From Synechococcales cyanobacterium bin59.metabat.ball.084 (GTDB lineage Bacteria; Cyanobacteriota; Cyanobacteriia; Cyanobacteriales; Chamaesiphonaceae), in the NCBI GenBank assembly GCA_013297675.1, contig JAAFHZ010000020.1, forward strand, positions 1-45,649: 45,649 bases of DNA, in the 5' to 3' direction. Within the stretch, counting starts at the first letter, position 1, and each line of letters opens with the position of its first letter. The notes under the pieces are model-generated. The model ran no database searches. It was not told where the DNA came from and saw nothing but the letters and a program-made list of their open reading frames with translations. Positions 33,368 to 45,649 of the stretch are shown here, piece by piece. A program made the position numbers and the translations under genes.

Positions 33368-34750
33368 CTAATATTTAGGCTTCTTTACTCTAGTCCCTAG
33401 CTTCGGTAACTCTAGAGTAAACAGACTGCCTTGACCCACTTTACTCTGGACATTTAATCGCCCGCGATGGAGAGTGGCGATCGATTTCACAATGGCCAAT
33501 CCTAAACCCGAACCCCCATCGTGGCGCGATCGATTGTTATAAACCCGATAAAACCGATCGAAAATCCTTTTTTGAGCCTTGGGATCTATCCCCACTCCGG
33601 TATCCTGTACCTGAATAATCGCCATCCGATTTCGCTGCCGGAGAAAAACTGTTACCTGTCCCTTAGGAGGCGTATATTTAATGGCATTCACAATTAAATT
33701 CGTCACCAATCGATATAGCTGCTCACTATTGCCCCACACCCATAGAGCATGATTAACTCCCATTACCGTATTGAACTGAATGTCTGCGGCGATCGCCATA
33801 GCTGCTAACTCTTCATCTAAATCAGCCACAATATTGTTTAAACAACAAGCTTCCCACTCTTGACGAAAGCCAGTGCTTTTACCACCATAAGCCCGCAAAT
33901 CAATTCGTGACAATAACAACAAATCGGCAACCAACTGAATTAGCCGTTGGTTTTGGCGTTGAATAATAATTAAAACTTCTTGAATTTGTGGCCATTCTGC
34001 ACCTGGCTGCAACAAAGTAGATTCCACCGTAGCCTGAGTCGCGGCCAGAGGAGTTCGCAGCTCATGAGCTGCATCGGCGGTGAATTGTTGAATGTGTTGG
34101 TAAGAACGATAAATCGGCTTCATGGCTGATCCGGCTAGCAGCCAGCTTGCTATTAAAATAACCATCCAGGCGATCGGCAGCCCCACAGTTAACAACCAGC
34201 GCACTTCTTTCAAGTTATCAGCCACATCTTGTAAATCACGACTGACCTGCAAGTATCCCCATTCTCTTTCTTGATTATCATGCAGCAGGATAGTTTTTTG
34301 CAAGTAATAGTTACCGTCAGACACACTGATAATCAACTGCTGTTTGGCCGGAATAATATTTAGTTTGGGCGGTAATTGATTATCAGTAACTGCAATTAAT
34401 TTACTGCTTTTGTCGAACATCTGAATATGATATTCGTTCACTAAAATAGATTTAAGATAACGATGAAACTGCTGTTTTTTTTCTGGGCATTTATTGCCAT
34501 TCAGGCACATTTGCGGCATAAAAGCCAATACATCTTTAGAGACTTCTCCGGGCTTACTCAGGTTGGCTTCCATTTCATTATGCATTACTCCCACAAAAGA
34601 CTCTAGCTCTTTGGTGGCGCTAAACATCAAAATATGTTGGGTGGTCACGTACCAAACACCGCCCATAATGCCCAAAATAACCGCCATCGCGGCGGCATAA
34701 GAAAATGCCAACCTCCAGCGAGTTCTACTAAACAGTCGATTTCTTTGCAT
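33368..34750 (-). CDS. rppB: Sensor histidine kinase, RppB-like
   Basis: 460 aa. Two membrane spans (about 15-37 and 185-206) flank a ~145-residue periplasmic sensor with a Cys pair, C82 and C88 (QMCLNGNKCPE), that could bind metal or form a disulfide. The cytoplasmic part has the H box AAHELRTPLAA (His229), N box NLIVNAIKYTPP, G1 DTGVGIDP and G2 GGSGLGLAIVKS. Sequence style and gene order match RppB/NrsS of cyanobacteria, which responds to redox state or nickel. It follows the response regulator by 3 nt, so they are co-transcribed. Kinase function is certain; the signal is inferred. Confidence 0.85.
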   Translation of the reverse strand: MQRNRLFSRTRWRLAFSYAAAMAVILGIMGGVWYVTTQHILMFSATKELESFVGVMHNEMEANLSKPGEVSKDVLAFMPQMCLNGNKCPEKKQQFHRYLKSILVNEYHIQMFDKSSKLIAVTDNQLPPKLNIIPAKQQLIISVSDGNYYLQKTILLHDNQEREWGYLQVSRDLQDVADNLKEVRWLLTVGLPIAWMVILIASWLLAGSAMKPIYRSYQHIQQFTADAAHELRTPLAATQATVESTLLQPGAEWPQIQEVLIIIQRQNQRLIQLVADLLLLSRIDLRAYGGKSTGFRQEWEACCLNNIVADLDEELAAMAIAADIQFNTVMGVNHALWVWGNSEQLYRLVTNLIVNAIKYTPPKGQVTVFLRQRNRMAIIQVQDTGVGIDPKAQKRIFDRFYRVYNNRSRHDGGSGLGLAIVKSIATLHRGRLNVQSKVGQGSLFTLELPKLGTRVKKPKY

Positions 34751-34753
34751 AAT

Positions 34754-35443
34754 TTAACCAACCACAAATCGATAGCCTACTCCGCGCACTGTCTCGATCG
34801 TGCTTTTACATTCAATATCGGCTAGCTTGCGGCGCAATAAACGCATTTGAGCGGCCACCACGTTACTAAAGCTATCGGAATCCAAAGACCAAATTTGAGC
34901 GCGGATTTGCTCACTGGTTAAAATTCGATCGGGGTGACGCATGAGATATTCCAACATTTGCAGCTCTTTGGTGGTCAGCGAAACCGGCGTATGCTGCTGG
35001 CCAGAAACCTGCATCACCGTGCGAGTACTATAGTCTAGCAGCAGATCTCCCGCCTGTAATTGCTGGGATTGTAACTGTGGCGATCGACGCTGCAAAGCCC
35101 GCAGTCTGGCCAATAACTCCGCCATCCCAAAAGGCTTGACTAAATAATCATCGGCTCCGGCATCTAGCCCCATCACCTTGTCTTCCATGCTGTCTCGGGC
35201 CGTCAGCATTAAAATTGGCAGAGCCTGAGATTGGCTGCGCAAGCGTTGACATAGCTCAATGCCCGATAAACCGGGTAACAGCCAGTCAAAGACTGCCATT
35301 TCGTACTTTGTCCAATTGGAAGTGAGATACTCCCAAGCTAAGTCTCCATCCTGCACCCAGTCCACCACGTAGGCCGATTGGGTAAGGGTCTGCTGGATAG
35401 CTGCACCGAGATCTGGTTCGTCTTCTACTAGTAATAGCCGCAT
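34754..35443 (-). CDS. rppA: OmpR-family response regulator, RppA-like
   Basis: 229 aa. The receiver domain has the acidic pair in LLVEDEPDLG, phospho-acceptor Asp53 (VFDWLLPGLSG), a switch Thr in LMLTARDS and Lys in LVKPFG. The C-terminal winged helix is of the OmpR/PhoB type (VSLTTKELQMLEYLMRHPDRILTSEQI, ending ETVRGVGYRFVVG). It pairs with the adjacent kinase; the Synechocystis counterpart RppA/NrsR regulates photosynthesis or nickel-export genes. No nickel exporter gene is next to it here. Confidence 0.88.
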   Translation of the reverse strand: MRLLLVEDEPDLGAAIQQTLTQSAYVVDWVQDGDLAWEYLTSNWTKYEMAVFDWLLPGLSGIELCQRLRSQSQALPILMLTARDSMEDKVMGLDAGADDYLVKPFGMAELLARLRALQRRSPQLQSQQLQAGDLLLDYSTRTVMQVSGQQHTPVSLTTKELQMLEYLMRHPDRILTSEQIRAQIWSLDSDSFSNVVAAQMRLLRRKLADIECKSTIETVRGVGYRFVVG

Positions 35444-35536
35444 AATTTAGGTCAGGCGGAATTTTACCCCCTTACTATAGCAAGATCATCTAAAGCAATT
35501 CCAAATTCATTTTTCTGGAAGTTTTGCTAATTTAGT

Positions 35537-38500
35537 TTAAATCTGTCCGCCCACACCTTTAAACTTCTCAACAAACGCTGCGATTTTTTGAAAAATGCTC
35601 TGCTTCTTGGTTTTGTATTGTGGGTTAAGCGGACTCATACTAGGCATTGTGGAATTTAACTCAGTCCCGTTTTCACTGGCGAAACCGCGTTTTAGGGAGG
35701 CGCTGATATAGCGCTTGGCTGCTGCTTCCTGCAAACCTTCTGAACTAATCAACTCATTTGCTTCGCGGGTTTGCTCGGCTTGGGCAAATTCAAAAAACGC
35801 ATCAATGATGCTGGCTTTATCGGCCATCTCATCGAGATTGGTTTGATTGATGAAATCTACAATCAGGCTTTCTTTGGCGCGATTACCCAGGCTGGCTCGA
35901 ATCAAGCGGCGCACTTCTTCGATCAACTCACCTTTATTTTTATTCTTTTTATGCTGCTCAAAAATCAGCTCAAGAATGTAATCTAAATTGATCTCTTGGG
36001 ATTTCAGCAAATCCACTTCAAACACCACATCGTCCCAATTGATGGTGGATTTTTCTTTTTCACTGCCCACTTTTTCCCGACGTAACCAGTCGCGGATATC
36101 GTTGTAGGTGGAGCGGTAATCTTGAATGGTGCGATCGGCAGGAACCTTGATTGCTTGGAGTGCTGTCAGGTCTTCATCACTTAAATATTGCGCCGCTTTA
36201 AACGCTTCAACCGCTGCTGGGTCATTCATGTCGATATTTTGCAAGGCTTTCAGGCTGGCAAATTCATCGTAGTTTTGCAGCACATTTTCAACGCGCAGAT
36301 ATTCACCAAATAGCTTGGCAAAGTCTTTTTTGTCTTTTTCTAAAACGATCTCGTCGGGGTGAGGAAAACGCTGCTCTAATTCTGTGACTACTTCCACAAA
36401 GCCGCGCCGAGCTTCGCCAGTCACCAGGTCAGTAAAGCCGCCCATGTATTCTTTGTAGCTTTTTTCTAGCACCACATTTTTGGTATTTTTATCGCCAAAC
36501 AGGGTAATGGCATCGATCGTGGCTTGTTCTAAATCGCGGAAGGTGACGATATTGCCAAAGGTTTTGGTGGCATCATAAATGCGGTTGGTGCGCGAATAGG
36601 CTTGCAGCAAACCGTGATAGCGTAGGTTTTTGTCCACAAACAGCGTGTTAAGCGTAGGTGCATCAAAACCAGTCAGGAACATGCCCACCACGATCAGTAG
36701 ATCAATTTCCTTGGCTTTTACTTGCTTGGCCAGATCGCGGTAGTAGTTTTGAAAACCATTGCTATCCACGCTGAAGTTGGTTGTAAACAGCGCGTTATAG
36801 TCAGCGATCGCCACAGCTAAGAATTCTTTGGCGCTGCTGTTCATGGCTGATACATCAAAGCCTTCATCCAAAATTTCGCCCACGGTTTCTTGTTCTTCGT
36901 TGGCGGCAAAGGAAAAAATGGTGGCAATTTTCAGGGGTTTATCGCGGCCTGTTTGCAACTGCTTAAATGTTTCGTAATACAGCTTGGCAGCTTCTACACT
37001 GCTCACGGCAAACAGAGCATTAAAGCCTTTTCCTGTCTGCAAGCGGTGAGTTTTTTGGCGGAAATTATTCAAGATGTATTGGGAAATCTGGCGAATCCGA
37101 TCGGGGTGTAATAGGGCTTGTCTATTTTCGGCGGCGCTGAGCTTTTGCTCGTCTTGCTCGCTTTCAATGGCTTTGAACTGGGGACGGACATCGTTGTAGT
37201 CCACCTTAAACTTCAGCACTTTTTCATCACGGATTGCGTCGGTGATCACATAGGAATGCAGCTCACGACCAAACACGCTGGCGGTGGTATCTGCGCCCAG
37301 GGCGTTTTGCGGAAAAATGGGTGTGCCAGTGAAGCCAAACTGATAAAACCGCTTAAATTTTTTCTTTAAGTTCTTCTGCGCCTCACCAAACTGGCTGCGG
37401 TGGCATTCATCAAAAATAAACACGACTTGCTTGCTGTAGATGGCTAGGTCGCTTTCGGTTTTCATCAGGTTATTCAGCTTCTGGATGGTGGTGACGATGA
37501 TTTTGTTGTCGTCTTTATCCAGATTACGCTTCAGCCCCGCTGTGCTGTCAGAGCCATTCACGCTATCGGGCGAAAAGCGCTGGTATTCTTTCATGGTTTG
37601 GTAGTCCAGGTCTTTTCTGTCCACCACAAAAAACACTTTGTCGATAAAATCTAGCTCAGTGGCTAACCGCGCCGCTTTAAAGCTGGTGAGGGTTTTGCCC
37701 GAGCCAGTGGTGTGCCAGATGTAGCCGCCGCCCTCAATATGGCTCCAGTGTTTGGCTTGGTAAGCGCTATTGATTTTCCATAAAATGCGCTCGGTGGCAG
37801 CAATTTGGTAGGGGCGCATCACCAGCAGAGTGTCATTCACATCAAATACCGCATACTGCAACAGCACGTTCAGTAGGGTATTTTTCTGAAAAAAGGTGGT
37901 GGTAAAGTCTTTTAGGTCTTTGATCAGGTTGTTATCGGCTTCTGCCCAGTTCATAGTAAAGTCGAAGCTATTTTTATTCCGCTGGGTGGTGTTGGCAAAG
38001 TAGCGGGTATCGGTGCCGTTGGAAATGACAAATAGTTGCAAATATTTATACAGGGAGTGTTCGGCATTAAAGCTTTCTTTGCTGTAGCGATGCACTTGGT
38101 TAAAGGCTTCCCGAATCGCCACGCCGCGCTTTTTTAGCTCAATTTGCACCAGGGGCAAGCCGTTGACCAAAATGGTTACATCGTAGCGGTTGGCTTGGGT
38201 GCCCTTTTGTGCAAATTGCTTGATCACTTGTACTTTGTTGTGGGCAAGGTTCTTTTTATCGAGGAGGTAGATGTTTTGAATGCGCCCATCGTCAAATACA
38301 AAATCATGGATGTAATTATCATGAATTTTACGGGTTTTATCGGTAATGCTATCGCTAGGTTTATCTAAAAAGGTTTCTACAAAACGCTGCCATTCGCCCT
38401 CGGTAAACTGCACGTTATTCAACGTCTGCAATTGCTCACGCACGTTGGCTAGCAGGGCTTGCTGGCCGGTTATACTGGGCAGGTATTGATAGCCTTGATT

Positions 38501-38632
38501 AGATAAATCCTCAATGAACTCGCTCTCCAAATCATATTCGCTTTGGTAGCTTTCGCTAGTTTTTGGTTGCTTGCTATATTTATCCAGCACGATGAAGTTA
38601 TTGGATTCGGCAATGGTGTTGTAGTCAGTCAT
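35537..38632 (-). CDS. hsdR: Type I restriction enzyme R subunit HsdR
   Basis: 1031 aa. The N-terminal PD-(D/E)XK nuclease domain includes [15 protein letters not shown] (ELK of the active site) followed by an EAFNQVHRY stretch. SF2 helicase/translocase motifs follow: [35 protein letters not shown] (DECH), [12 protein letters not shown], and later [19 protein letters not shown] and [11 protein letters not shown] (motif VI). The C-terminal helical region binds the methylase core. An AGAGGA ribosome-binding site precedes the ATG. EcoR124-like (type IC) by overall look. It is separated from hsdS by several inserted genes and remnants. Confidence 0.94.
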
Positions 38633-38772
38633 TGGTTTTTGTCCTCTAGAAACTTTTGCTTCGCTAGTCTTTCCTTTACTTCAAATTGTGACACCAGCGG
38701 CGACACTATCCTTACCATTTGTCCCACAGGCTGCGGGACAAATTCAAATTCGGCACTTAAAAATATGTAGAA

Positions 38773-38897
38773 GCGTGAAAAATAATAGTGTTATGTGTTC
38801 ATGGTAATTCTCTCACCAGTGGTGAGAGTTTTGTATGTTTTAGGACATCTGAAAACTCGCTTTGCATATTCTGCGCTCTTTGCGGATGCTTGCTCAT
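38773..38897 (-). pseudogene. YhcG/DUF1016 remnant with internal deletion (junction copy C)
   Basis: Starts ATGAGCAAGCATCCGC, giving MSKHPQRAQNMQSEFSDVLK, the same as the head of the gene at 40193-40927. It then jumps straight to KLSPLVRELP, losing about 75 residues. The next Trp is now TGA before THNTIIF. The remaining gene is gone. In front of it (38898-38950) lies a copy of the HsdS C-terminal tail (EYCRDLLLSFPKTKEEQ and stop). Confidence 0.8.
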
Positions 38898-38950
38898 TGC
38901 TCCTCCTTAGTCTTGGGAAAACTTAGCAATAAATCGCGGCAATACTCTCG
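38838..38950. repeat. hsdS-tail / DUF1016-head junction repeat, copy C
   Basis: Near-identical to 40150-40274 and 40868-41004. It contains, on the minus strand, the last ~18 codons of an hsdS-like gene, CTAAGGAGGAGCAATGA, and the first ~20 codons of a DUF1016 gene. It begins directly after the stop codon of the HigA-like gene. Confidence 0.9.
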
Positions 38951-39370
38951 TCAGATAAAAGCAGCAGGGGAAACGTTAAAGTATTCTCCCAATTTCTTGG
39001 CTTGAGTTTTGCTGATTTCTCTTTTGCCACTAAGCATTGCCGATACTAGTCCTTTGTTTAAGCCAGTTACCTTGACTAGTTCAATTTGTTTTATTTCCCG
39101 TGCTTCCATTAAATGCTGTAAGAATTCATGGGGCTTGGTGTTTATCCATTCCTGAAAAGAATAGGTTTTTTCTTCATAGTCTCGAATGAGTTTGACCAGC
39201 AACATAAATAAAGCCGTTTCAGATTCTATGCGTTCATTACGCTTAGATAAAAGGCTTTCTGTTACTGTAAGAAAATGCTCGTATTCTGGCTGGGTTTCGA
39301 TGATCTTGGGACTGATTTCGTATCTGTTGAGTAACTCTATATAGCTATCTCTGTTAATAGTGAGGGTCAT
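38951..39370 (-). CDS. HigA-like XRE-family regulator (antitoxin-type)
   Basis: 139 aa from ATG 39370. A GTG at 39466 would add 32 residues and overlap the preceding stop (TAGTG), so coupling from there is possible; the family usually starts at MTLTINRDSY. The N-terminal half is helical and the C-terminal half an HTH (LMEAREIKQIELVKVTGLNKGLVSAMLSGKREISKTQAKKLGEYFNVSPAAFI), as in HigA antitoxins. No HigB/RelE toxin ORF is adjacent. The upstream PD-(D/E)XK-like gene is the only possible partner. It may control the restriction island. Confidence 0.75.
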   Translation of the reverse strand: MTLTINRDSYIELLNRYEISPKIIETQPEYEHFLTVTESLLSKRNERIESETALFMLLVKLIRDYEEKTYSFQEWINTKPHEFLQHLMEAREIKQIELVKVTGLNKGLVSAMLSGKREISKTQAKKLGEYFNVSPAAFI

Positions 39371-39465
39371 TTTTCCATTCATCCTTGCTGTAGTCAGCGT
39401 GAGTGAGAAAGTATTTAAAGTATGCGACTTGGCTTTCGTAGCCGGAATCAAGTAATCATAGCTCA

Positions 39466-40059
39466 CTAACTTAGTATCGATTTGAGAATGCCAAGAACTT
39501 TATGAATTGGCATTAGTGGATAATTATCTGGGTCGATCATCACTTTATCGCCTTCCAGTTTAAGAAATTGCCACAATCTACCACTAGTTACACAACCATG
39601 TATAACTGGAATAGTTTGTCCTTGACTCTGATTGTAAAGCTGTGCTGCTATCATTTCAGCTACACATTGACCTAACCCAAATTCAATCTCTCCTCGTTTA
39701 GCTTCTACTAGCATGAATACCGGAGCGTCAATAGTATAAGGGTTAGCAGATCTGCTGAATAAAAAATCACAAAATCCATTCAAGCCTTTTTCCTGATCTA
39801 CATTAAACTCTTCTCCAGAAAACAACTTTACCGTTCCTCCAGATAATTTAGTTGCTTGAGCCAAGATTGGCGTAACTAACAACTCTGATTTAGCCTTTTC
39901 GGTTCTTGCACCTTCAGCCAATTCCAATAGGTCATTGAACACAATTGTAAACTCTAGTTGTGGCTCAGCGATCGGTAAAGAATCGCAAAATCGTTCGTTG
40001 ATGATTGTTAGGCTAAATTGATTTTTAGCTAATTCTAATGTGAAAGTATTGTATGCCAT
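39466..40059 (-). CDS. PD-(D/E)XK-like nuclease-fold protein of unknown function
   Basis: 197 aa. The central stretch GFCDFLFSRS...APVFMLVEAKRGEIEFGLGQCVAEMIAAQLYNQ has the D - (13-20 residues) - ExK geometry of PD-(D/E)XK nucleases (VEAK), followed by a Gln-containing helix, as in HsdR N-terminal domains and related proteins. The rest is not recognised. GAGG lies 6-7 nt before its ATG. It sits between YhcG/HsdS remnants and the HigA-like gene inside the type I island. An accessory defence nuclease is a reasonable guess, not shown. Confidence 0.65.
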   Translation of the reverse strand: MAYNTFTLELAKNQFSLTIINERFCDSLPIAEPQLEFTIVFNDLLELAEGARTEKAKSELLVTPILAQATKLSGGTVKLFSGEEFNVDQEKGLNGFCDFLFSRSANPYTIDAPVFMLVEAKRGEIEFGLGQCVAEMIAAQLYNQSQGQTIPVIHGCVTSGRLWQFLKLEGDKVMIDPDNYPLMPIHKVLGILKSILS

Positions 40060-40149
40060 GTGAACCTCAAATTAGTTTAAGTGGTAATAGGAATCCTAAG
40101 TACTAAGTCCTCTAAACTCCAGAGTTGCCAAAGCCCCTGCATAAGCATT

Positions 40150-40274
40150 AGAAAATTCGCTTTGTATATTCTGCACTTTTGCGGCTGCTTGCTCATTGTT
40201 CCTCTTTAGTCTTGGGAAAACTTAACATTAAATCGCGGTAGCATTCGTATTGCTTTTGGCGCAAGGCAATTTCA
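40150..40274. repeat. hsdS-tail / DUF1016-head junction repeat, copy B
   Basis: Contains the shared HsdS-like tail that ends the gene at 40193-40927 and, beyond its stop, a second DUF1016 start (MSKQPQK) that is frameshifted by loss of one A and decays within ~45 nt. Confidence 0.9.
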
Positions 40275-40927
40275 TGGGGGATAAAATCTCTACCCAGCTC
40301 AAGGATAAACTGCTTCATATTTTGAATGAGTGCTTTTTGCAGTTCTTTCTCTTCGTGTTCCATCGGCAAACCCAAAAACTCTAATACATAATTATCTTTT
40401 AGGGTGTGATCGATACTGGGATGAATTTCTCTCAGCACTGCCGAGAGTTTTTGATTGCCGAGCATAGTCCGTTCAAAGTGAGAAGAACTAATCTGCCGTT
40501 CCAGCTCTCTTGATGAATAGTGTTCTTTGATGCACATTCGCAGGTAATATTCCCGCTCTTCGGTGGACTTACAGCGCGAAAAAATAATGGTGTTATGCGT
40601 CCACGGTAATTCTCTCACCAGTGGTGAGAGTTTTGGATCAGATTGGTAGGTTTCATAAAACTGCTTCATTCGCCACAGATTTTTGTCGCTAAAACCTTTG
40701 ATTTCTGGGGCGTTTTGGGTGATGTAGTTGGCTAGTTCACTTACAACACTTTTGCCCCAAGATTCACTGCTCACTTTCTGGCTGATAATTTGACCAATCT
40801 GCCAATAGAGGTGGATGAGGGCGGTATTGATGTGAGCAAAAACTTTCTGTCGGGATTCCTGAATTTGTTTTAGGACATCAGAAAACTCACTTTGCATATT
40901 CTGCACTTTTTGCGGCTGCTTGCTCAT
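40193..40927 (-). CDS. YhcG/DUF1016 N-terminal protein, truncated and fused to an HsdS tail
   Basis: 244 aa. Residues 1-~215 are the DUF1016 N-terminal helical domain (HLYWQIGQIISQKV, FSDKNLWRMKQFYETYQ, LPWTHNTIIFSRCKSTEEREYYLRMCI, HPSIDHTLKDNYVLEFLGLP). Normal YhcG proteins continue into a C-terminal PD-(D/E)XK nuclease domain and reach ~340 aa. Here the frame instead ends with IALRQKQYECYRDLMLSFPKTKEEQ, almost identical to the last 25 residues of the neighbouring HsdS. The gene is thus a recombinant that has lost its nuclease domain. It overlaps hsdS by 4 nt (ATGA), so it is translationally coupled. DUF1016 genes commonly accompany type I systems, but this copy is probably inactive as a nuclease. 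Confidence 0.85.
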   Translation of the reverse strand: MSKQPQKVQNMQSEFSDVLKQIQESRQKVFAHINTALIHLYWQIGQIISQKVSSESWGKSVVSELANYITQNAPEIKGFSDKNLWRMKQFYETYQSDPKLSPLVRELPWTHNTIIFSRCKSTEEREYYLRMCIKEHYSSRELERQISSSHFERTMLGNQKLSAVLREIHPSIDHTLKDNYVLEFLGLPMEHEEKELQKALIQNMKQFILELGRDFIPHEIALRQKQYECYRDLMLSFPKTKEEQ

Positions 40928-41004
40928 TGTTCCTCCTTAGTCTTGGGAAAACTTAACAACAAATCGCGGTAATATTCGTATTGCTTTTGGCGCAAGGCGA
41001 TTTC
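40868..41004. repeat. hsdS-tail / DUF1016-head junction repeat, copy A (intact)
   Basis: The genuine junction between hsdS and the DUF1016 gene; template for copies B and C. It includes the ATGA overlap and the CTAAGGAGGAACAATGA ribosome-binding region. Confidence 0.9.
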
Positions 41005-42189
41005 ACGGGGCAAGCCTTCGCTGATGGAATGGGTGAGGGTGTCGAATTTGTCTAGAATGGCCACGATGCGAGCTTGTTCTTCGAGGGGTGGAACAGGAAT
41101 GGATATCTTTGAAAATCCGTTAATCAATAACGTATTTACCTTAGTTCTTGCTACGTACTTTGCCTTTTCTGCAATAAATGAAGTGGCTTGCATACAATAA
41201 GAAATAAATTTCGGGTTCATCGGGTGGCGAAAAGCATAGCAATGATCATGAATAGCTATTTTTTTAGTTCCAATCCATGCAACGGCTTTGCCAACATCTT
41301 CAACAGTCTCTCCGACATCGGTAATCACAACATCCCCCGGTTCTGCATAGCGTAATGATGCTGCCATTTCAGCGCGAACCTGTGATAGTGAATGAGAGGT
41401 TGAAACTCCATATCGTGTGTAAATTTCGCCGTAGTGAATAACTTGTATGCCGTTATCCACGTAATCCGCTTTGGTGAAACGTTTTCCGCGAATAAACTCG
41501 CCAATTTCCCCCAACGGCTTCCACTCCACTTCACTTTCTTCAAAACTCAACAACCGATCGCGGTAGTAGTTATATTGTTTCTTGCGATCGATCAGCTCGG
41601 CGGTCAGCTCGGCGGTCAGCTCGGCGGTCAGCGCTGTAAAAGTGTCCAAAATCCGCACGATTTCGGCTTGAATGGCAAGAGAGCGATCGGGGTTTTCTGG
41701 GCATGGGATGGGGATTAGGAATTTCCTAAAACCATTCATATCGACAGAAGCAAAACTCGACATTGTTGTATTTTTCTTACACCAATCTGCCAAGAGAAAG
41801 AAGTAGTAAAAGATGAATTTAATATCAAGAGTTTTAATATAGCTTTCTTTTACGCTTAAATTAGTAAACCTTTGGTTAGCCAAATATGGAACAGTGATTA
41901 AAGCATGTTCGCCAATTGTTGCCGATGTTGCAATTATGATCGAATTAGCAGGAAACAACTTTCCACCTTTTACGGCACTCTCTGAAATTTTTTGCAATGA
42001 ATCATTAAGAATTTGACCGTTCTCACGAATATCATCCATCCTAAACCAAGGGATAGAACCACCTTCCCAAAATTCTTTTTTTGTCGTTGATGGTGTATAA
42101 CCATTTTTCAAATGAAATATTTCTTCAAGAGGCTTCCACTCCACTGACCCCCCATCCAACAGCTTTTCCAGAAAATTTATACCGCTCAT
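40924..42189 (-). CDS. hsdS: Type I restriction enzyme specificity subunit HsdS
   Basis: 421 aa with two target recognition domains (about 15-175 and 225-385), each followed by a conserved helical spacer. TRD1 starts VEWKPLEEIFHLKNGYTPST and TRD2 VEWKPLGEIGEFIRGKRFTK. The central spacer has TAL-TAEL-TAEL-TAEL-IDRKKQYNYYRDRLLSF: three TAEL units, as in the EcoR124 family, where two versus three units shift the gap in the recognition sequence by one base. The C-terminus repeats the motif as IALRQKQYEYYRDLLLSFPKTKEEQ. It overlaps the upstream 87-aa ORF and the downstream DUF1016 gene by 4 nt each. Confidence 0.93.
   Translation of the reverse strand: MSGINFLEKLLDGGSVEWKPLEEIFHLKNGYTPSTTKKEFWEGGSIPWFRMDDIRENGQILNDSLQKISESAVKGGKLFPANSIIIATSATIGEHALITVPYLANQRFTNLSVKESYIKTLDIKFIFYYFFLLADWCKKNTTMSSFASVDMNGFRKFLIPIPCPENPDRSLAIQAEIVRILDTFTALTAELTAELTAELIDRKKQYNYYRDRLLSFEESEVEWKPLGEIGEFIRGKRFTKADYVDNGIQVIHYGEIYTRYGVSTSHSLSQVRAEMAASLRYAEPGDVVITDVGETVEDVGKAVAWIGTKKIAIHDHCYAFRHPMNPKFISYCMQATSFIAEKAKYVARTKVNTLLINGFSKISIPVPPLEEQARIVAILDKFDTLTHSISEGLPREIALRQKQYEYYRDLLLSFPKTKEEQ
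41593..41628 (-). repeat. Three 12-bp units encoding TAEL in hsdS
   Basis: CAGCTCGGCGGT three times in perfect tandem (plus-strand reading), then a partial fourth. Slippage would add or remove four residues without breaking the frame. Confidence 0.95.
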
Positions 42190-42449
42190 GCGTCACCTCC
42201 ATTAATTCCCTGCAATTCCCGCTCGATCGCCTCGATGCTTGGCAATTGTGCAACAGCCTGTTGCACAAATTCAACATCTGTTCCATTAATTATCTGCAAT
42301 TCCCACCTGATCGCCTTGATGCTCAGCAATTGTGCAAGCATGTCTTGCACAAATTCAATATTTGTCCATGTATGGACAAGTCCCCTCAACCAGATGTTAT
42401 GGCCATCCGGCGTACCGATCGAAGTAATAGACTGTGCTGACTTACTCAT
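42186..42449 (-). CDS. Small hypothetical protein with internal 28-residue duplication
   Basis: 87 aa. Residues 31-58 (IEFVQDMLAQLLSIKAIRWE...) and 59-86 (VEFVQQAVAQLPSIEAIERE...) are a tandem duplication, also visible as 84-bp units in the DNA (42192-42359). The segment is helical and ends in LPSIEAIERELQG, which is reminiscent of the ends of DUF1016 or type I accessory proteins. It overlaps hsdS by 4 nt and the upstream 72-aa ORF by 8 nt, so the whole operon is coupled. I do not recognise a function; an HsdS-associated accessory or decayed gene fragment are both possible. Confidence 0.6.
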   Translation of the reverse strand: MSKSAQSITSIGTPDGHNIWLRGLVHTWTNIEFVQDMLAQLLSIKAIRWELQIINGTDVEFVQQAVAQLPSIEAIERELQGINGGDA

Positions 42450-42660
42450 AGGTATACCTCAACTCTTGCTCAGATGGAAAATTTAGCTTGTACTTACTAA
42501 TAAAAAGACGGTCTTTGCTTTGCAATTCTTGGGTCAACGACCCAAGAATCTCAGGGCACACCTTATAAAACTGGCGGCAGCGCGACAACCCAGGGGCAAT
42601 TAGTTCTCTAAGTTGGCTTTGAAAGAAGCGATGTACTTGGTTAAAGCTTAGATTACTCAT
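42442..42660 (-). CDS. Small hypothetical protein, possible DUF1016 fragment
   Basis: 72 aa, coupled to hsdM by a 4-nt overlap. The stretch [22 protein letters not shown] resembles the helix of DUF1016 N-terminal domains (G-x-x-x-x-R-x-FY-x-x-x-P-x-I), and [14 protein letters not shown] resembles their C-terminal ends (YKL-x-x-P-x-x-x-x-L). It may therefore be a severely shortened DUF1016 protein lacking the whole middle. The similarity is by eye and weak. Confidence 0.5.
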
Positions 42661-44198
42661 GCTTCTATCTCCGCCACGATCGCCTCAATCTCAGCCCGCA
42701 AGCGATCGATCTTCACAACAGTGCTTTTTAACTCAGCATTAAGCGCGGTGATATCCGTGATTTCGCGGGTATCCTCGGCTTCCACATAGCTGCTCACCGA
42801 CAGATTGTAATCATTAGCTCCAATCTCCTCAAAAGGCACCGATCGAGCGAAGTGGGCAAGATTTTCTTTGCTGTCAAACACCCCCATGATTTTATCAATG
42901 TGGTCATCGTTTAGGGTGTTGGTGTTGGTTTCTTTTTTAAACAGTCCACTAGCATCAATAAACTGAGTATCAGTATCGGTCTTGTGTTTAGATAGCACCA
43001 AAATAGTCACGGCGATCGTAGTACCAAAAAACAGATTAGGCGCGAGTGAAATCACGGTTTCAACATAGTTGTTATCCACCAGATACTTGCGGATTTTGGC
43101 TTCCGCACCGCCCCGGTAAAAAATACCAGGGAAGCACACGATCGCCGCCCGACCCTTGCTTGATAAATAGCTCAAGCAATGCAACACAAAAGCAAAGTCA
43201 GCTTTAGATTTAGGCGCAAGTACCCCTGCCGGGGCAAAGCGATCGTCATTAATCAGCGTCGGGTTGTCACTGCCAACCCAATTCACCGAATAAGGCGGGT
43301 TAGAGACGATCGCATCAAAGGGCTTCTCATCCGCAAAATACGGATCGGTCAGAGTATTGCCCAACTGCATCTCGAACTTGTCGTAGTTGATGTTGTGCAA
43401 AAACATATTCATCCGCGCCAAGTTATAAGTGGTGTGGTTAATCTCCTGCCCATAAAAACCGTCTTCAATAATGTGAGCATCAAAGTGCTTTTTGGCTTGC
43501 AATAGCAGCGAACCAGAACCACAGGCGGGGTCATAAATTTTATTGACAGTGGTTTGCTGGTGCATGGCAAGCTGGGCAATCAGCCGCGAGACATGCTGCG
43601 GAGTAAAAAACTCACCGCCCGACTTACCAGCATTGGCGGCATAGTTGGAGATTAAAAACTCATAGGCATCGCCAAACAGATCGATATGGCTGCCCTCAAA
43701 ATCACCAAAATCTAGCCCTGCCACGCCTTTTAGTACCGCAGCCAAGCGCAGGTTTTTATCTTTAACCGTGTTGCCGAGGCGGTTGCTGGTAGTATCAAAA
43801 TCGGCAAACAGCCCTTTGATATCTGTCTCAGAAGGGTAGCCATTGGCAGAGCTTTCGATCGCTGCAAAAATCGCGGCTAGATCGGTATTCAGGCTTTCAT
43901 TGGTGTTGGCACTGGCAGAGATCGAAGCAAACAACTGGCTGGGGTAAATAAAGTAGCCCTTGGTTTTAATGGCATCCTCTTTGATATCGTCGGTAATCAC
44001 GCTATCTGGCAGCTTGGCATAGTGGATGCTATCATCACCAGCCTCGATGTAGCTGGCAAAGTTTTCACTGATAAAGCGGTAAAATAGTGTGCCGAGCACG
44101 TATTGCTTAAAATCCCAGCCATCGACCGAGCCGCGAACATCATTGGCTATTTTCCAGATTTGGCTTTGTAGGGCGGCGCGTTGTTGGGTACTCGTCAT
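42657..44198 (-). CDS. hsdM: Type I restriction-modification methyltransferase subunit HsdM
   Basis: 513 aa, N6-adenine methyltransferase of the gamma class. The N-terminal helical HsdM_N domain ([34 protein letters not shown]) is followed by the SAM-binding motif [13 protein letters not shown] and catalytic motif IV NPPYS within [16 protein letters not shown]-terminal coiled coil ([28 protein letters not shown]) contacts HsdS. It is first gene of the island, with two small ORFs and then hsdS downstream. EcoR124-like. The 560-nt upstream gap presumably holds the promoter. Confidence 0.95.
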
Positions 44199-44768
44199 TA
44201 TGAAAATTCTGATTCAACAGGTTTTGAATAGCGGTCAGTGTGGCATGAGTTGTGTATTTTAACAAGTACAGGCATTGTAATCTAGCCGTTTTAGATGTTG
44301 GTACACTCTAGGCGCATCATATCAGAGAGTGCATAATCAAAAATTCGCAAAAAAATAACCCACCTCTACAAGAGAAGCGGGAGCAGTAAGTTTTCGTGGT
44401 GTGTGATCTGAAGATGTTGAGTTGGCATTAGATAAATAACCAATGAACACCTTTGACATGTCTTTAGTATTGCCCAGTAGTGTGAAATTGAGATGAAATT
44501 ATCAGTCGATCGAATATTTTTTAGAGCAATCAGCATCGATAAATCCATAAAACGCTTTTGGGTAATGGAATACAAGGTATTGACGCAGTAGCTTTTTTTA
44601 GCGCAAAAAATTCCTCAGTGTGATTTAGATCGCTGCGAGTTGTCTTCCAGATCGCCGAGGTTATGGAATATCAGCACCTTCTCAAATTTGTTAATTCATT
44701 CTCGAAAATAAAGGTACTTTGCAATTACGGTCTGGGTATGTTATCAATGACCGCTCACATTGTCTACT
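44199..44768. other. Intergenic region upstream of hsdM
   Basis: About 570 nt between divergent genes. A short inverted repeat, CACTCT / AGAGTG, occurs near 44307-44334. A 69-codon minus-strand frame (44366-44575) has no family features and is not annotated. Probably promoters only; no RNA gene recognised. Confidence 0.35.
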
Positions 44769-45455
44769 ATGACCTCGATTCGCCGCCAAATCCGCAAATA
44801 CTACCCTCAACGCTTGGAGCTGATCCACGAAACTCCAACTACTCTGACTTTACAGCGAGGTTCATTGCCTCGATCGAAGGCCATCAAAAAAGCTTGGATC
44901 GATTATTTAGAGGCGTTGGTGTTTTTTTTGCTGCCAGTGGCCGCTTTTTTCTCACCACTGCCCTTAATGGCTAAGCCTTGGCTGAAAGCGCAGCTCGATT
45001 TAGATCTTACCGTGGTGTCTGCCGATGTTTATTGGTTGGGGATAGCGGTGCTGGCAATTCCTACCATATACAACGCCTGCTTCCGTCCCTGCTTTGCGAT
45101 TTGGACTTTTGATAAATCGCGGCGGCAAATTGAGCGGGTAATTACTAATGGCTTGGGCGTAGAGCTAAGCACCTATTTTAATTTCAATGAAGTGGTAGAT
45201 ATCGAGGTCAGTCAATATTGGGCTGGTGAGCAGAAAAAACACTATTATTGCTGGCTGGTACTAGATTCTGGCTATCGGATTTTTCTGAGCCACTGTAAAA
45301 CCGGGGTCGATCGACGGTCAAAGAATATGATCCTGTATCATCACTTGGCTCTAGCCGAAAAAATGCGGGGGTTGATGTCTTTATATACTCCACCTTCCCA
45401 AAGAGCTAATCGGGTTGGGGTGCCCATTAAGCGAGATTATGAGCAAGACGATTAG
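44769..45455 (+). CDS. Membrane protein of unknown function
   Basis: 228 aa from ATG 44769; a TTG 9 nt earlier is an alternative. After a basic N-terminus with a short beta-like stretch (RLELIHETPTTLTLQRG) there are two hydrophobic spans (ALVFFLLPVAAFFSPLPLMA and VYWLGIAVLAIPTIYNACF). The cytoplasmic domain reads FDKSRRQIERVITNGLGVELSTYFNFNEVVDIEVSQYW... YYCWLVLDSGYRIFLSHCKTG. This strand pattern resembles PH-like domains of bacterial YdbS/bPH type, which is tentative. No catalytic motif. Not linked to the restriction island (opposite strand). Confidence 0.65.
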   Translation: MTSIRRQIRKYYPQRLELIHETPTTLTLQRGSLPRSKAIKKAWIDYLEALVFFLLPVAAFFSPLPLMAKPWLKAQLDLDLTVVSADVYWLGIAVLAIPTIYNACFRPCFAIWTFDKSRRQIERVITNGLGVELSTYFNFNEVVDIEVSQYWAGEQKKHYYCWLVLDSGYRIFLSHCKTGVDRRSKNMILYHHLALAEKMRGLMSLYTPPSQRANRVGVPIKRDYEQDD

Positions 45456-45588
45456 GCGCAAAGGACTTTGCTCGATCGACCTTCTGGACTTGGATGCATT
45501 TCGGCAGATACTCGCTGCGCCGGGTATCTAATTTTTCAGGGATGCAAGAATGCTTTAAAATAGTAGAACATGCTGGTGCATAAATACT

Positions 45589-45649
45589 ATGGCAATCATC
45601 TCTTCTAAAAAACCTCCTGCTGATGACGACGACGAATCGCCCAAGCCTG
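45589..45649 (+). CDS. Start of an unidentified gene, cut by the window end
   Basis: ATG at 45589 opens a frame MAIISSKKPPADDDDESPKP that runs off the window. It is acidic and proline-rich, too short to identify. No strong ribosome-binding site is visible, so the start is provisional. Confidence 0.4.
   Translation, partial: MAIISSKKPPADDDDESPKP

What the first reader, a model, noticed from the sequence alone, without database searches (positions are those of the whole stretch)
38773..41004. Threefold hsdS-tail/DUF1016-head junction and a chimeric YhcG protein
The same ~110-130 bp junction occurs at 40868-41004, 40150-40274 and 38838-38950. The middle copy has replaced the nuclease end of the DUF1016 gene with the HsdS C-terminus; the last is a remnant with a 75-residue deletion and a stop. 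This shows repeated duplication and recombination in which genes (PD-(D/E)XK-like, HigA-like) have been inserted between units. It suggests a recombination hot spot, perhaps serving hsdS shuffling or cargo capture.
Basis: seen in the sequence. Interest (0 to 1): 0.65.

Follow-up and report, generated by a model that had tools for sequence, protein, structure and literature searches.

The report
Seams of stacked restriction-locus cargo genes
Between the genes of a bacterial DNA-restriction system, leftover ends of its own core genes mark where extra, mostly defence- or toxin-type genes were added one after another by recombination, which gives a readable trace of how such add-on genes build up.

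Summary
The hsdS-tail/DUF1016-head junction occurs at 40860-41010 (native), 40146-40279 and 38836-38947, and nowhere else in this genome; the copies are 90-91% alike. The middle one cuts off the DUF1016/YhcG nuclease domain and replaces it with an HsdS tail.

Comparison explains it. Loci of this HsdR family (EcoR124-like) carry cargo between hsdM and hsdS and between hsdS and hsdR: DUF1016, RhuM, Fic, PrrC-like ATPase, HigBA, DarTG. In 10 of 37 genomic loci and 0 of 12 plasmid loci the slots hold broken core-gene ends: hsdR heads, hsdS or hsdM tails, one hsdS head. Four loci show hsdR-head|hsdS-tail seams; one of them joins two lineages. Cargo dS is roughly half that of hsdM/hsdR.

Best reading: loci exchange cargo by recombination in the conserved core genes; when one end joins illegitimately, a second module is stacked and a core-gene end stays as a scar. 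The window looks like a three-layer stack, though there the extra copies may be decayed in-lineage duplicates. HsdS shuffling is not supported. Embedded cargo is known; my searches found no report of these seams.

The parts
42657..44198 (-). hsdM, intact (513 aa)
   Evidence: Pfam N6_Mtase and HsdM_N
42442..42660 (-). small ORF (72 aa): relic of a DUF1016-like gene with an internal deletion
   Evidence: tblastn 40% to a 161-aa ORF in the same slot of L175, E 1e-16; that this ORF is DUF1016-like rests on its weak match to the DUF1016 region (27%, E 6e-6)
42186..42449 (-). small ORF (87 aa): relic of a second DUF1016 type; head, then twice a mid-piece plus C-terminal piece (84-bp tandem repeat 42198-42365)
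   Evidence: tblastn to L134 10636-11691 residues 1-30 and 332-350 and to L178 residues 91-113; repeat D2
40924..42189 (-). hsdS, intact, two target-recognition domains (421 aa)
   Evidence: Pfam Methylase_S, two stretches
40860..41010 (-). junction copy 1: native hsdS tail / DUF1016 head, 4-bp overlap ATGA
   Evidence: same compact arrangement in L134; 90% to the native junction of L041
40193..40927 (-). DUF1016 (YhcG-like) gene cut after about codon 216 and fused in frame to an hsdS tail (244 aa); most of the nuclease domain missing
   Evidence: N-terminal part dN/dS 0.086
40146..40279 (-). junction copy 2 (scar): last 28 codons of hsdS plus about 17 codons of a DUF1016 head
   Evidence: 91% to copy 1; L041 5050-5181
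39466..40059 (-). PD-(D/E)XK-like gene, one of a large cyanobacterial paralogous family (19 matches in this genome)
   Evidence: PADLOC PD_DExK E 1e-51, no Pfam match; DNA homology to G009 stops at the gene's ends (39465-40074)
39357..39441 (-). relic of the 3' part of higB, directly after the PD-(D/E)XK gene
   Evidence: tblastn 63% to HigB residues 53-99 of G095, reported over 39509-39357; DNA comparison by eye places its start near 39441
38951..39466 (-). higA-like antitoxin gene, orphan (87-90% aa to HigA next to HigB in G095)
   Evidence: HTH_3/HTH_26
38836..38947 (-). junction copy 3 (scar): last about 17 codons of hsdS plus about 20 codons of a DUF1016 head
   Evidence: 91% to copy 1
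38772..38836 (-). DUF1016 relic continued after a deletion of about 76 codons
   Evidence: 91% to L041 5419-5484; repeat D3
38716..38775 (-). relic of a third DUF1016 type, just upstream of hsdR
   Evidence: 75% over 20 residues to L172/L183 residues 88-107
35537..38632 (-). hsdR, intact, EcoR124-like (1031 aa)
   Evidence: Pfam HSDR_N, SWI2_SNF2, EcoR124_C

Best explanation
[quoted passage not shown] Homologous loci in different bacteria carry different cargo genes in the hsdM-hsdS and hsdS-hsdR slots. DNA from another such locus recombines through the conserved core genes. If both ends recombine homologously the cargo is swapped and no trace is left. If one end is homologous and the other joins illegitimately, the new cargo is added beside the old one, and a broken end of the flanking core gene stays between the modules: a tail of the upstream gene, a head of the downstream gene, or both. 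The window shows three such layers: hsdS-DUF1016 | hsdS tail-DUF1016 head-[PD-(D/E)XK, HigA] | hsdS tail-DUF1016 relic-hsdR. Shown: the scars, their place at the slot-facing gene ends, the foreign ancestry of several scars in other loci, and the lower divergence of cargo. Inferred: that the joining is homology-assisted illegitimate recombination between loci, rather than a tandem arrangement of loci followed by deletion. Not settled: whether the window's own extra copies came from another lineage or from this one.
For: (1) Ends of hsdR, hsdS or hsdM lie in the slots of 10 of 37 loci that hold hsdM and hsdR. (2) Six hsdR heads start at residue 1-3; three hsdM tails end at or within 6 nt of the stop; six short hsdS tails lie in about the last 35 codons. 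(3) Controls outside the loci: protein level, 247,898 bases, only two weak hits not at gene ends; nucleotide level, 312,799 bases, 19 pieces with weak hits, best E 1e-4, against E 2e-9 or better for every counted nucleotide scar. (4) hsdR-head|hsdS-tail seams separate modules in L041, L127 and L174, and lie between two hsdS-hsdR units in L190. (5) In L190 the DNA after the seam matches G618 at 96-99%, its hsdR start at 98-100%, while the truncated hsdR before it is in its later half 97-99% identical to a second locus of the same genome. (6) Scars rank closer to a foreign than to their own core gene in L041 (hsdS head), L127 (85-nt hsdR head, hsdS tail), L186, L187, L190 and L169. (7) dS of cargo against hsdR/hsdM: HigA 0.34 v 0.60/1.03; AAA 0.36 and DUF4276 0.27 v 0.70/0.68; DUF1016 0.33 v 0.64/0.84. 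(8) A locus with plain hsdS-DUF1016-hsdR and no scar exists (L134). (9) A ComEC-type competence protein is in the genome.
Against: In the window itself the extra copies are nearest the native copy. The native copy is as close to L041 (90%) as to them (91%), while they are 82-84% to L041; this fits copies that split off within this lineage and then decayed faster. Nearest to their own gene are also the L041 hsdS tail (90.2 v 89.9%), the L127 hsdM tail (98%), the L174 hsdR head (92%), and the L127 37-nt hsdR head, the L174 hsdS tail and L230; L171 is undecided. The pieces after the L190 seam are not in the same order as in G618 (one recognition domain sits at the other position). Of 21 hsdS-hsdR gaps longer than 1,300 bases 13 show no scar, and a preset test of long gaps was not significant (2,000 or more: 5 of 17 with scars; shorter: 3 of 28; Fisher p 0.23). 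The HsdS middle-piece control was not clean. ComEC also rings in 10 of 14 control genomes. Lower cargo dS could partly be gene-specific rate.
Confidence: 0.63

Rival explanations
1. In-place tandem duplication of the hsdS-DUF1016 segment within one lineage, followed by decay and later gene insertions; no import is needed. (Odds raised from 0.2, for the window above all.)
For: All three window copies contain the same hsdS-DUF1016 junction. The extra copies are 91% to the native one but only 82-84% to L041, while the native one is 90% to L041, as expected of decaying in-lineage copies. L174, L230 and the L127 hsdM tail are nearest their own genes.
Against: In L041, L127, L171, L174 and L230 the modules on the two sides of a scar are different genes, not copies. 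In L190 the two sides have different ancestry.
Confidence: 0.27
2. An hsdS shuffling (phase-variation) locus in which the extra hsdS tails are silent cassettes.
For: Several hsdS 3' ends lie beside an active hsdS.
Against: The extra copies hold at most 29 codons of the tail and no target-recognition domain. No inverted repeats of 25 nt or more. Longest identical run between junctions 28 nt. No recombinase among the eight ORFs scanned.
Confidence: 0.02
3. Site-specific integration: the hsdS 3' end or hsdR 5' end is an attachment site of a mobile element whose insertions regenerate the gene end.
For: Scars sit at gene ends, as with elements that integrate into 3' ends of genes.
Against: Break points vary from seam to seam: 18 to 615 nt of hsdR head, 38 to 98 nt of short hsdS tail. 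Both hsdM and hsdS tails and hsdR heads occur. None of the cargo proteins scanned with Pfam (10, the window's) is a recombinase; other cargo was not scanned.
Confidence: 0.03
4. The fused DUF1016-HsdS-tail protein is a working new adaptor, kept by selection, that docks the DUF1016 N-domain on the type I enzyme.
For: The frame is open over 244 codons, and the DUF1016 part has dN/dS 0.086 against L041, like hsdR at 0.085.
Against: A recent truncation would give the same ratio. The fused tail was seen in this locus only, and 3 of its last 27 residues differ from the native tail.
Confidence: 0.05

Closest known systems
rlo/mlo genes in Campylobacter jejuni type I loci (Miller et al. 2005; seen only as cited in PMC5183652 and PMC2610378, passages)
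   Same: ORFs inserted between hsdR and hsdS and between hsdS and hsdM; rearrangements within one hsd family.
   Different: Other cargo. The passages I saw do not describe core-gene scars; I did not see the 2005 paper itself.
[quoted passage not shown] coli, RptR island (PMC12255303, passages)
   Same: Defence cargo in the hsdS-hsdR slot, called there a potential recombination hotspot; DarT and macro-domain genes also occur in slots here (L127, scanned; L178, read by eye).
   Different: No traces of how cargo got there: the words scar, duplication, remnant and truncated do not occur in its main text.
EcoprrI/PrrC anticodon nuclease in a type IC locus (PMC12707154 and PMC2610378, passages)
   Same: An AAA_13 gene lies between hsdS and hsdR in L230, ORFs with a like start in other loci, and one is annotated anticodon nuclease in L240.
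   Different: Single cargo gene; no stacking described in the passages seen.
hsdR relic beside rloC in Geobacillus kaustophilus (PMC2610378, passages)
   Same: A broken hsdR piece beside a restriction-linked cargo gene.
   Different: C-terminal half of hsdR, in a transposon outside an hsd locus; one case.

Membership tests
Type I restriction-modification locus, EcoR124-like HsdR | hsdM, hsdS with two target-recognition domains, and hsdR with nuclease, motor and EcoR124_C domains, all intact and in one orientation | tested here: met
   Pfam; PADLOC REase_I over nearly the whole length
Type I restriction-modification locus, EcoR124-like HsdR | active restriction and methylation | not testable with these tools
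   no methylation data
DUF1016/YhcG nuclease | DUF1016_N domain | tested here: met
   PF17761 profile 2-137 of 137, E 5e-46
DUF1016/YhcG nuclease | complete YhcG_C PD-(D/E)XK nuclease domain | tested here: not met
   only profile 3-65 of 157; DUF1016 homology ends at 40280
HigBA toxin-antitoxin | HigA antitoxin with helix-turn-helix | tested here: met
   HTH_3, HTH_26
HigBA toxin-antitoxin | HigB toxin gene upstream | tested here: not met
   only a relic matching HigB residues 53-99; a HigB_toxin gene stands there in G095
Phase-variable (shuffling) hsdS locus | extra hsdS copies with target-recognition domains | tested here: not met
   extra copies are at most 29 codons of tail
Phase-variable (shuffling) hsdS locus | inverted repeats | tested here: not met
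   0 inverted pairs of 25 nt or more in 34000-45649
Phase-variable (shuffling) hsdS locus | recombinase gene nearby | tested here: inconclusive
   none among 8 ORFs of 35.5-44.2 kb; the rest of the window was not scanned
Cargo stack with core-gene scars (pattern described here) | fragments of flanking core-gene ends inside a slot | tested here: met
   two hsdS tails in the hsdS-hsdR slot
Cargo stack with core-gene scars (pattern described here) | foreign origin of the scar or module | tested here: inconclusive
   the window's scars are nearest their own hsdS, although HigA and DUF1016 have lower dS than hsdM/hsdR

The most novel reading that the evidence does not exclude
Type I restriction loci work as recombinase-free cassette platforms. 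The conserved ends of hsdM, hsdS and hsdR act as general recombination handles, by which defence and toxin genes are swapped and stacked between species. The hsdR-head|hsdS-tail seams are a datable record of these captures, so a locus can be read layer by layer.
Probability: 0.35. Interest if true: 0.7.

Novelty: new variant of a known kind. Interest (0 to 1): 0.45.

Why it matters
Genes embedded in type I restriction loci have been known for years, and the hsdS-hsdR gap has been called a potential hotspot (PMC12255303, passages). In the passages I saw, how the genes get in is not shown. Seams that join an hsdR head to an hsdS tail record the act of stacking and say which gene ends were used. 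They can be counted across genomes, used to order captures in time, and used to find new defence candidates by the seam instead of by gene similarity. They also warn that fused or truncated cargo genes such as this YhcG can be by-products of stacking.

Tried and rejected
HsdS shuffling: rejected (no target-recognition domain in the extra copies, no inverted repeats). Attachment site of an integrating element: rejected (variable break points). Assembly error: unlikely, because the copies differ by about 9% and the same kind of seam is seen in other genomes.

Palindromes near 38.7 and 42.2-42.35 kb: I first took them for REP-like mobile elements. They are parts of DUF1016 coding sequence (EFVPQPVGQ and EFVQQAVAQ).

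Slot hits dropped before counting scars, by my judgement: L178 (hsdS split by a transposase-like insertion), L182 and L189 (broken hsdS; the L182 tail piece could also be read as a scar), L183 (repeat-like matches, one of them antisense), L195 (half-length hsdS), L224 (hsdM frameshift), L229 (broken hsdS). Also dropped: nucleotide hits in L127 (one weak hsdS-head-like, one inside the hsdM tail), L134, L170, L186 (possible hsdS head), L187 (hsdS-head-like inside the hsdM tail), L226 and L231, and one weak antisense hsdM hit in L183. Loci dropped because hsdM or hsdR was missing or short: 8 of 38 and 1 of 8.

Gap length against scars, 45 loci with a complete hsdS (4 of 49 left out): the preset cut of 2,000 bases gave p 0.23. 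After seeing the list, gaps under 1,300 bases held scars in 0 of 24 and longer ones in 8 of 21; this is post hoc, and scars themselves add length. HsdS middle pieces failed as a control, because the HsdS centre resembles its tail.

Corrected on checking: I had first set the three copies apart from all other loci by identity. One search showed that the native copy matches L041 as well as it matches the extra copies, so that argument was dropped, and the odds of in-place duplication were raised and those of the best explanation lowered.

Not found or not run: a further order-level search held only 10 genomes and no new locus. No structure prediction was made.
Full report
What is in the window. 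On the minus strand the order is hsdM (44198-42657), two small relic ORFs, hsdS (42189-40924), a shortened DUF1016 gene fused to an hsdS tail (40927-40193), a PD-(D/E)XK-like gene (40059-39466), a HigA-like gene (39466-38951), relics, and hsdR (38632-35537). hsdM, hsdS and hsdR are full length and carry the expected Pfam domains; hsdR is of the EcoR124 kind (EcoR124_C).

The observation. The native hsdS-end/DUF1016-start junction is at 40860-41010. The whole genome holds two further copies, 40146-40279 and 38836-38947, both 91% identical. Copy 2 begins where the DUF1016 reading frame is cut: homology to the intact gene of L041 (Pseudanabaena M53BS1SP1A06MG) ends at 40280 and homology to the hsdS tail begins at 40279. 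The join looks blunt, with at most one shared base (my reading of the alignment). The result is an in-frame fusion. Pfam sees all of DUF1016_N but only positions 3-65 of 157 of the YhcG nuclease domain, and PADLOC sees the end of a specificity subunit. Copy 3 has about 17 codons of hsdS tail and about 20 codons of DUF1016 head, then a jump of about 76 codons, then a piece of a different DUF1016 type at 38775-38716.

How alike the copies are. Copies 2 and 3 are 91% to copy 1 and 90% to each other; against L041 they are 84% and 82%, against L134 83% and 80%. Copy 1 is 90% to L041, 87% to L134, 90% to G095 over 92 nt and 97% to the hsdS tail of G001 over 65 nt. The extra copies thus lie on longer branches than the native one, as expected of relics, and they join this lineage's copy.

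More relics. The PD-(D/E)XK gene belongs to a large cyanobacterial family (19 matches in this genome; 85 of 148 genomes searched have a match, own genome included). Its nearest relative in G009 (90%) stands beside a gene that reads like a histidine kinase in the 3.2 kb examined, and DNA homology stops at the ends of the gene (39465-40074). Behind it lies a relic of higB and then an intact higA. In G095 the same higA (87% aa) follows higB (HigB_toxin), so the window's antitoxin is an orphan. Between hsdM and hsdS the two small ORFs are eroded DUF1016-type genes, one with an 84-bp tandem repeat made of the same two DUF1016 pieces.

Relatives show what the junctions are. L134 (genome G316) has the plain state: hsdS, DUF1016 and hsdR in tight succession, though its DUF1016 ORF ends at codon 310. 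L041 has hsdS, a full DUF1016, then 18 nt of hsdR head, about 90 nt of hsdS tail, then an AAA ATPase and a DUF4276 gene, then hsdR. L127 (G095) has hsdM, DarT, a macro-domain gene, an hsdM tail of 58 codons, a small ORF, hsdS, an antisense ORF, an hsdR head, the AAA/DUF4276 pair, an hsdR head joined to an hsdS tail, HigB, HigA, hsdR. So cargo modules are separated by broken ends of the flanking core genes.

Survey. I took loci of this HsdR family and from whole-genome searches: DNA search of 120 relatives, 6 of 386 genomes of the phylum, 4 of 148 relatives, 28 of 301 genomes of one gammaproteobacterial order (25 of the 28 fetched) and 9 of 369 of the class (8 new). Of 38 loci in the first set 30 had hsdM and hsdR; of 8 in the second set 7 did. 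End fragments of hsdM, hsdS or hsdR lie in the slots of 10 of these 37: window, L041, L127, L169, L171, L174, L186, L187, L190, L230 (dropped hits are listed under Tried and rejected). Six hsdR heads start at residue 1-3; three hsdM tails end at or within 6 nt of the stop; six short hsdS tails lie in about the last 35 codons.

Controls. At protein level 247,898 bases outside the loci gave two weak hits (33-38% identity), neither at a gene end. At nucleotide level 312,799 such bases gave hits in 19 pieces, all weak (best E 1e-4), while every counted nucleotide scar has E 2e-9 or better. Of 12 plasmid loci that I chose from 40 listed of 970 matching records, none had a scar; their hsdS-hsdR slots are mostly empty or singly occupied.

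Seams. hsdR-head|hsdS-tail joins occur in L041, L127, L174 and L190. In L230 an hsdS tail stands between an AAA_13 (PrrC-like) gene and a RhuM gene. In L171 a RhuM head is fused to a DUF1016 body (my reading of the ORFs), a second chimeric cargo gene. L190 has no cargo: hsdS, 207 codons of hsdR, the 3' part of another hsdS, then hsdR. The DNA after the seam matches genome G618 at 96-99% in three pieces, not all in the same order (one recognition domain sits at the other position of hsdS), and its hsdR start at 98-100%. The truncated hsdR before the seam is closest to the second locus of its own genome, 97-99% in its later half. This is a join of two lineages.

Import or duplication. By bit score the nearest core gene to a scar belongs to another locus for the L041 hsdS head, the L127 85-nt hsdR head and hsdS tail, L186, L187 and L190 and L169. 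It is its own for the window's two scars, the L041 hsdS tail (90.2 against 89.9%), the L127 hsdM tail, the L174 hsdR head, and the L127 37-nt hsdR head, the L174 hsdS tail and L230. L171 is undecided. Cargo genes shared by two loci have roughly half the synonymous divergence of hsdR and hsdM of the same pair: HigA 0.34 against 0.60 and 1.03; AAA and DUF4276 0.36 and 0.27 against 0.70 and 0.68; DUF1016 0.33 against 0.64 and 0.84 (window-L041), 0.38 against 0.68 and 0.63 (window-L134), 0.40 against 0.78 and 0.76 (L041-L134). The 95% bootstrap intervals do not overlap, except that HigA touches hsdR (0.51) and the window-L134 DUF1016 (up to 0.54) overlaps hsdM (from 0.51). Modules therefore seem to move between homologous loci more recently than the core genes parted, unless rates differ by gene.

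Model. Recombination through conserved core genes swaps cargo. When one end is homologous and the other joins illegitimately, cargo is added and a core-gene end remains. The window reads as three units that each begin with an hsdS end: hsdS-DUF1016, hsdS tail-DUF1016 head-PD-(D/E)XK-HigA, hsdS tail-DUF1016 relic-hsdR. For the window alone, in-place duplication of the hsdS-DUF1016 segment fits the identities well, with PD-(D/E)XK and HigA then added. A tandem pair of loci with a later deletion would give the same seams.

The fused protein. The DUF1016 part shows no relaxed selection (dN/dS 0.086), but a recent truncation would look the same. Most of the nuclease domain is lost; that its catalytic residues lie in the lost part is recalled, not tested. 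I consider the protein most likely a by-product.

What is known. Embedded ORFs in type I loci (rlo, mlo) are described for Campylobacter; [quoted passage not shown] coli island, and the site is called a potential recombination hotspot; PrrC is embedded in EcoprrI; one hsdR relic stands beside rloC in Geobacillus (passages only). Among the rows listed by my nine library searches no title or abstract opening describes core-gene seams between stacked cargo. Several searches matched more papers than were listed, and the library lacks most subscription papers and, by its own account, bioRxiv, so this is weak evidence of absence.

Noticed in passing
L190 13454-14819, coordinates on the strand with hsdR forward (genome G641): hsdS - 207-codon hsdR head - 3' part of a foreign hsdS - hsdR, without cargo; two lineages joined, with one recognition domain at the other position than in G618. 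G641 has a second locus (L187) carrying an hsdM tail that resembles the first locus.
   Followed up: yes
L127 12821-11105 and 11078-10905 (genome G095): DarT and macro-domain (DarG-like) genes between hsdM and hsdS, followed by a 58-codon hsdM tail 98% identical to the full hsdM.
   Followed up: partly
L171 12521-13219, strand with hsdR forward: ORF that begins like RhuM and continues as DUF1016: a second chimeric cargo gene.
   Followed up: no
L169 slots, L186 and L229: 176-aa ORFs (three in L169) that look like REP-associated transposases (recalled likeness, not scanned), with short repeats around them that also hit the middle of hsdS in L169.
   Followed up: no
window 39466-40059: PD-(D/E)XK-like family with a match in 85 of 148 genomes searched (own included), often in many copies (19 in this genome); what multiplies it is unknown.
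   Followed up: no
L178 10752-13047: hsdS interrupted by two transposase-like ORFs, with DarT/DarG-like ORFs downstream before hsdR (read by eye).
   Followed up: no
L240 10804-11004 (Salinivibrio plasmid): 66-aa ORF, annotated winged helix-turn-helix regulator, between an anticodon-nuclease gene and hsdR; it may be a cargo remnant.
   Followed up: no
L128 and L133 (genome G001, same genus): hsdM-hsdS with DUF559- and RelA/SpoT-like ORFs on one contig, and hsdR preceded by PIN- and antitoxin-like ORFs and a transposase-like ORF on another (read by eye); the locus may be split.
   Followed up: no
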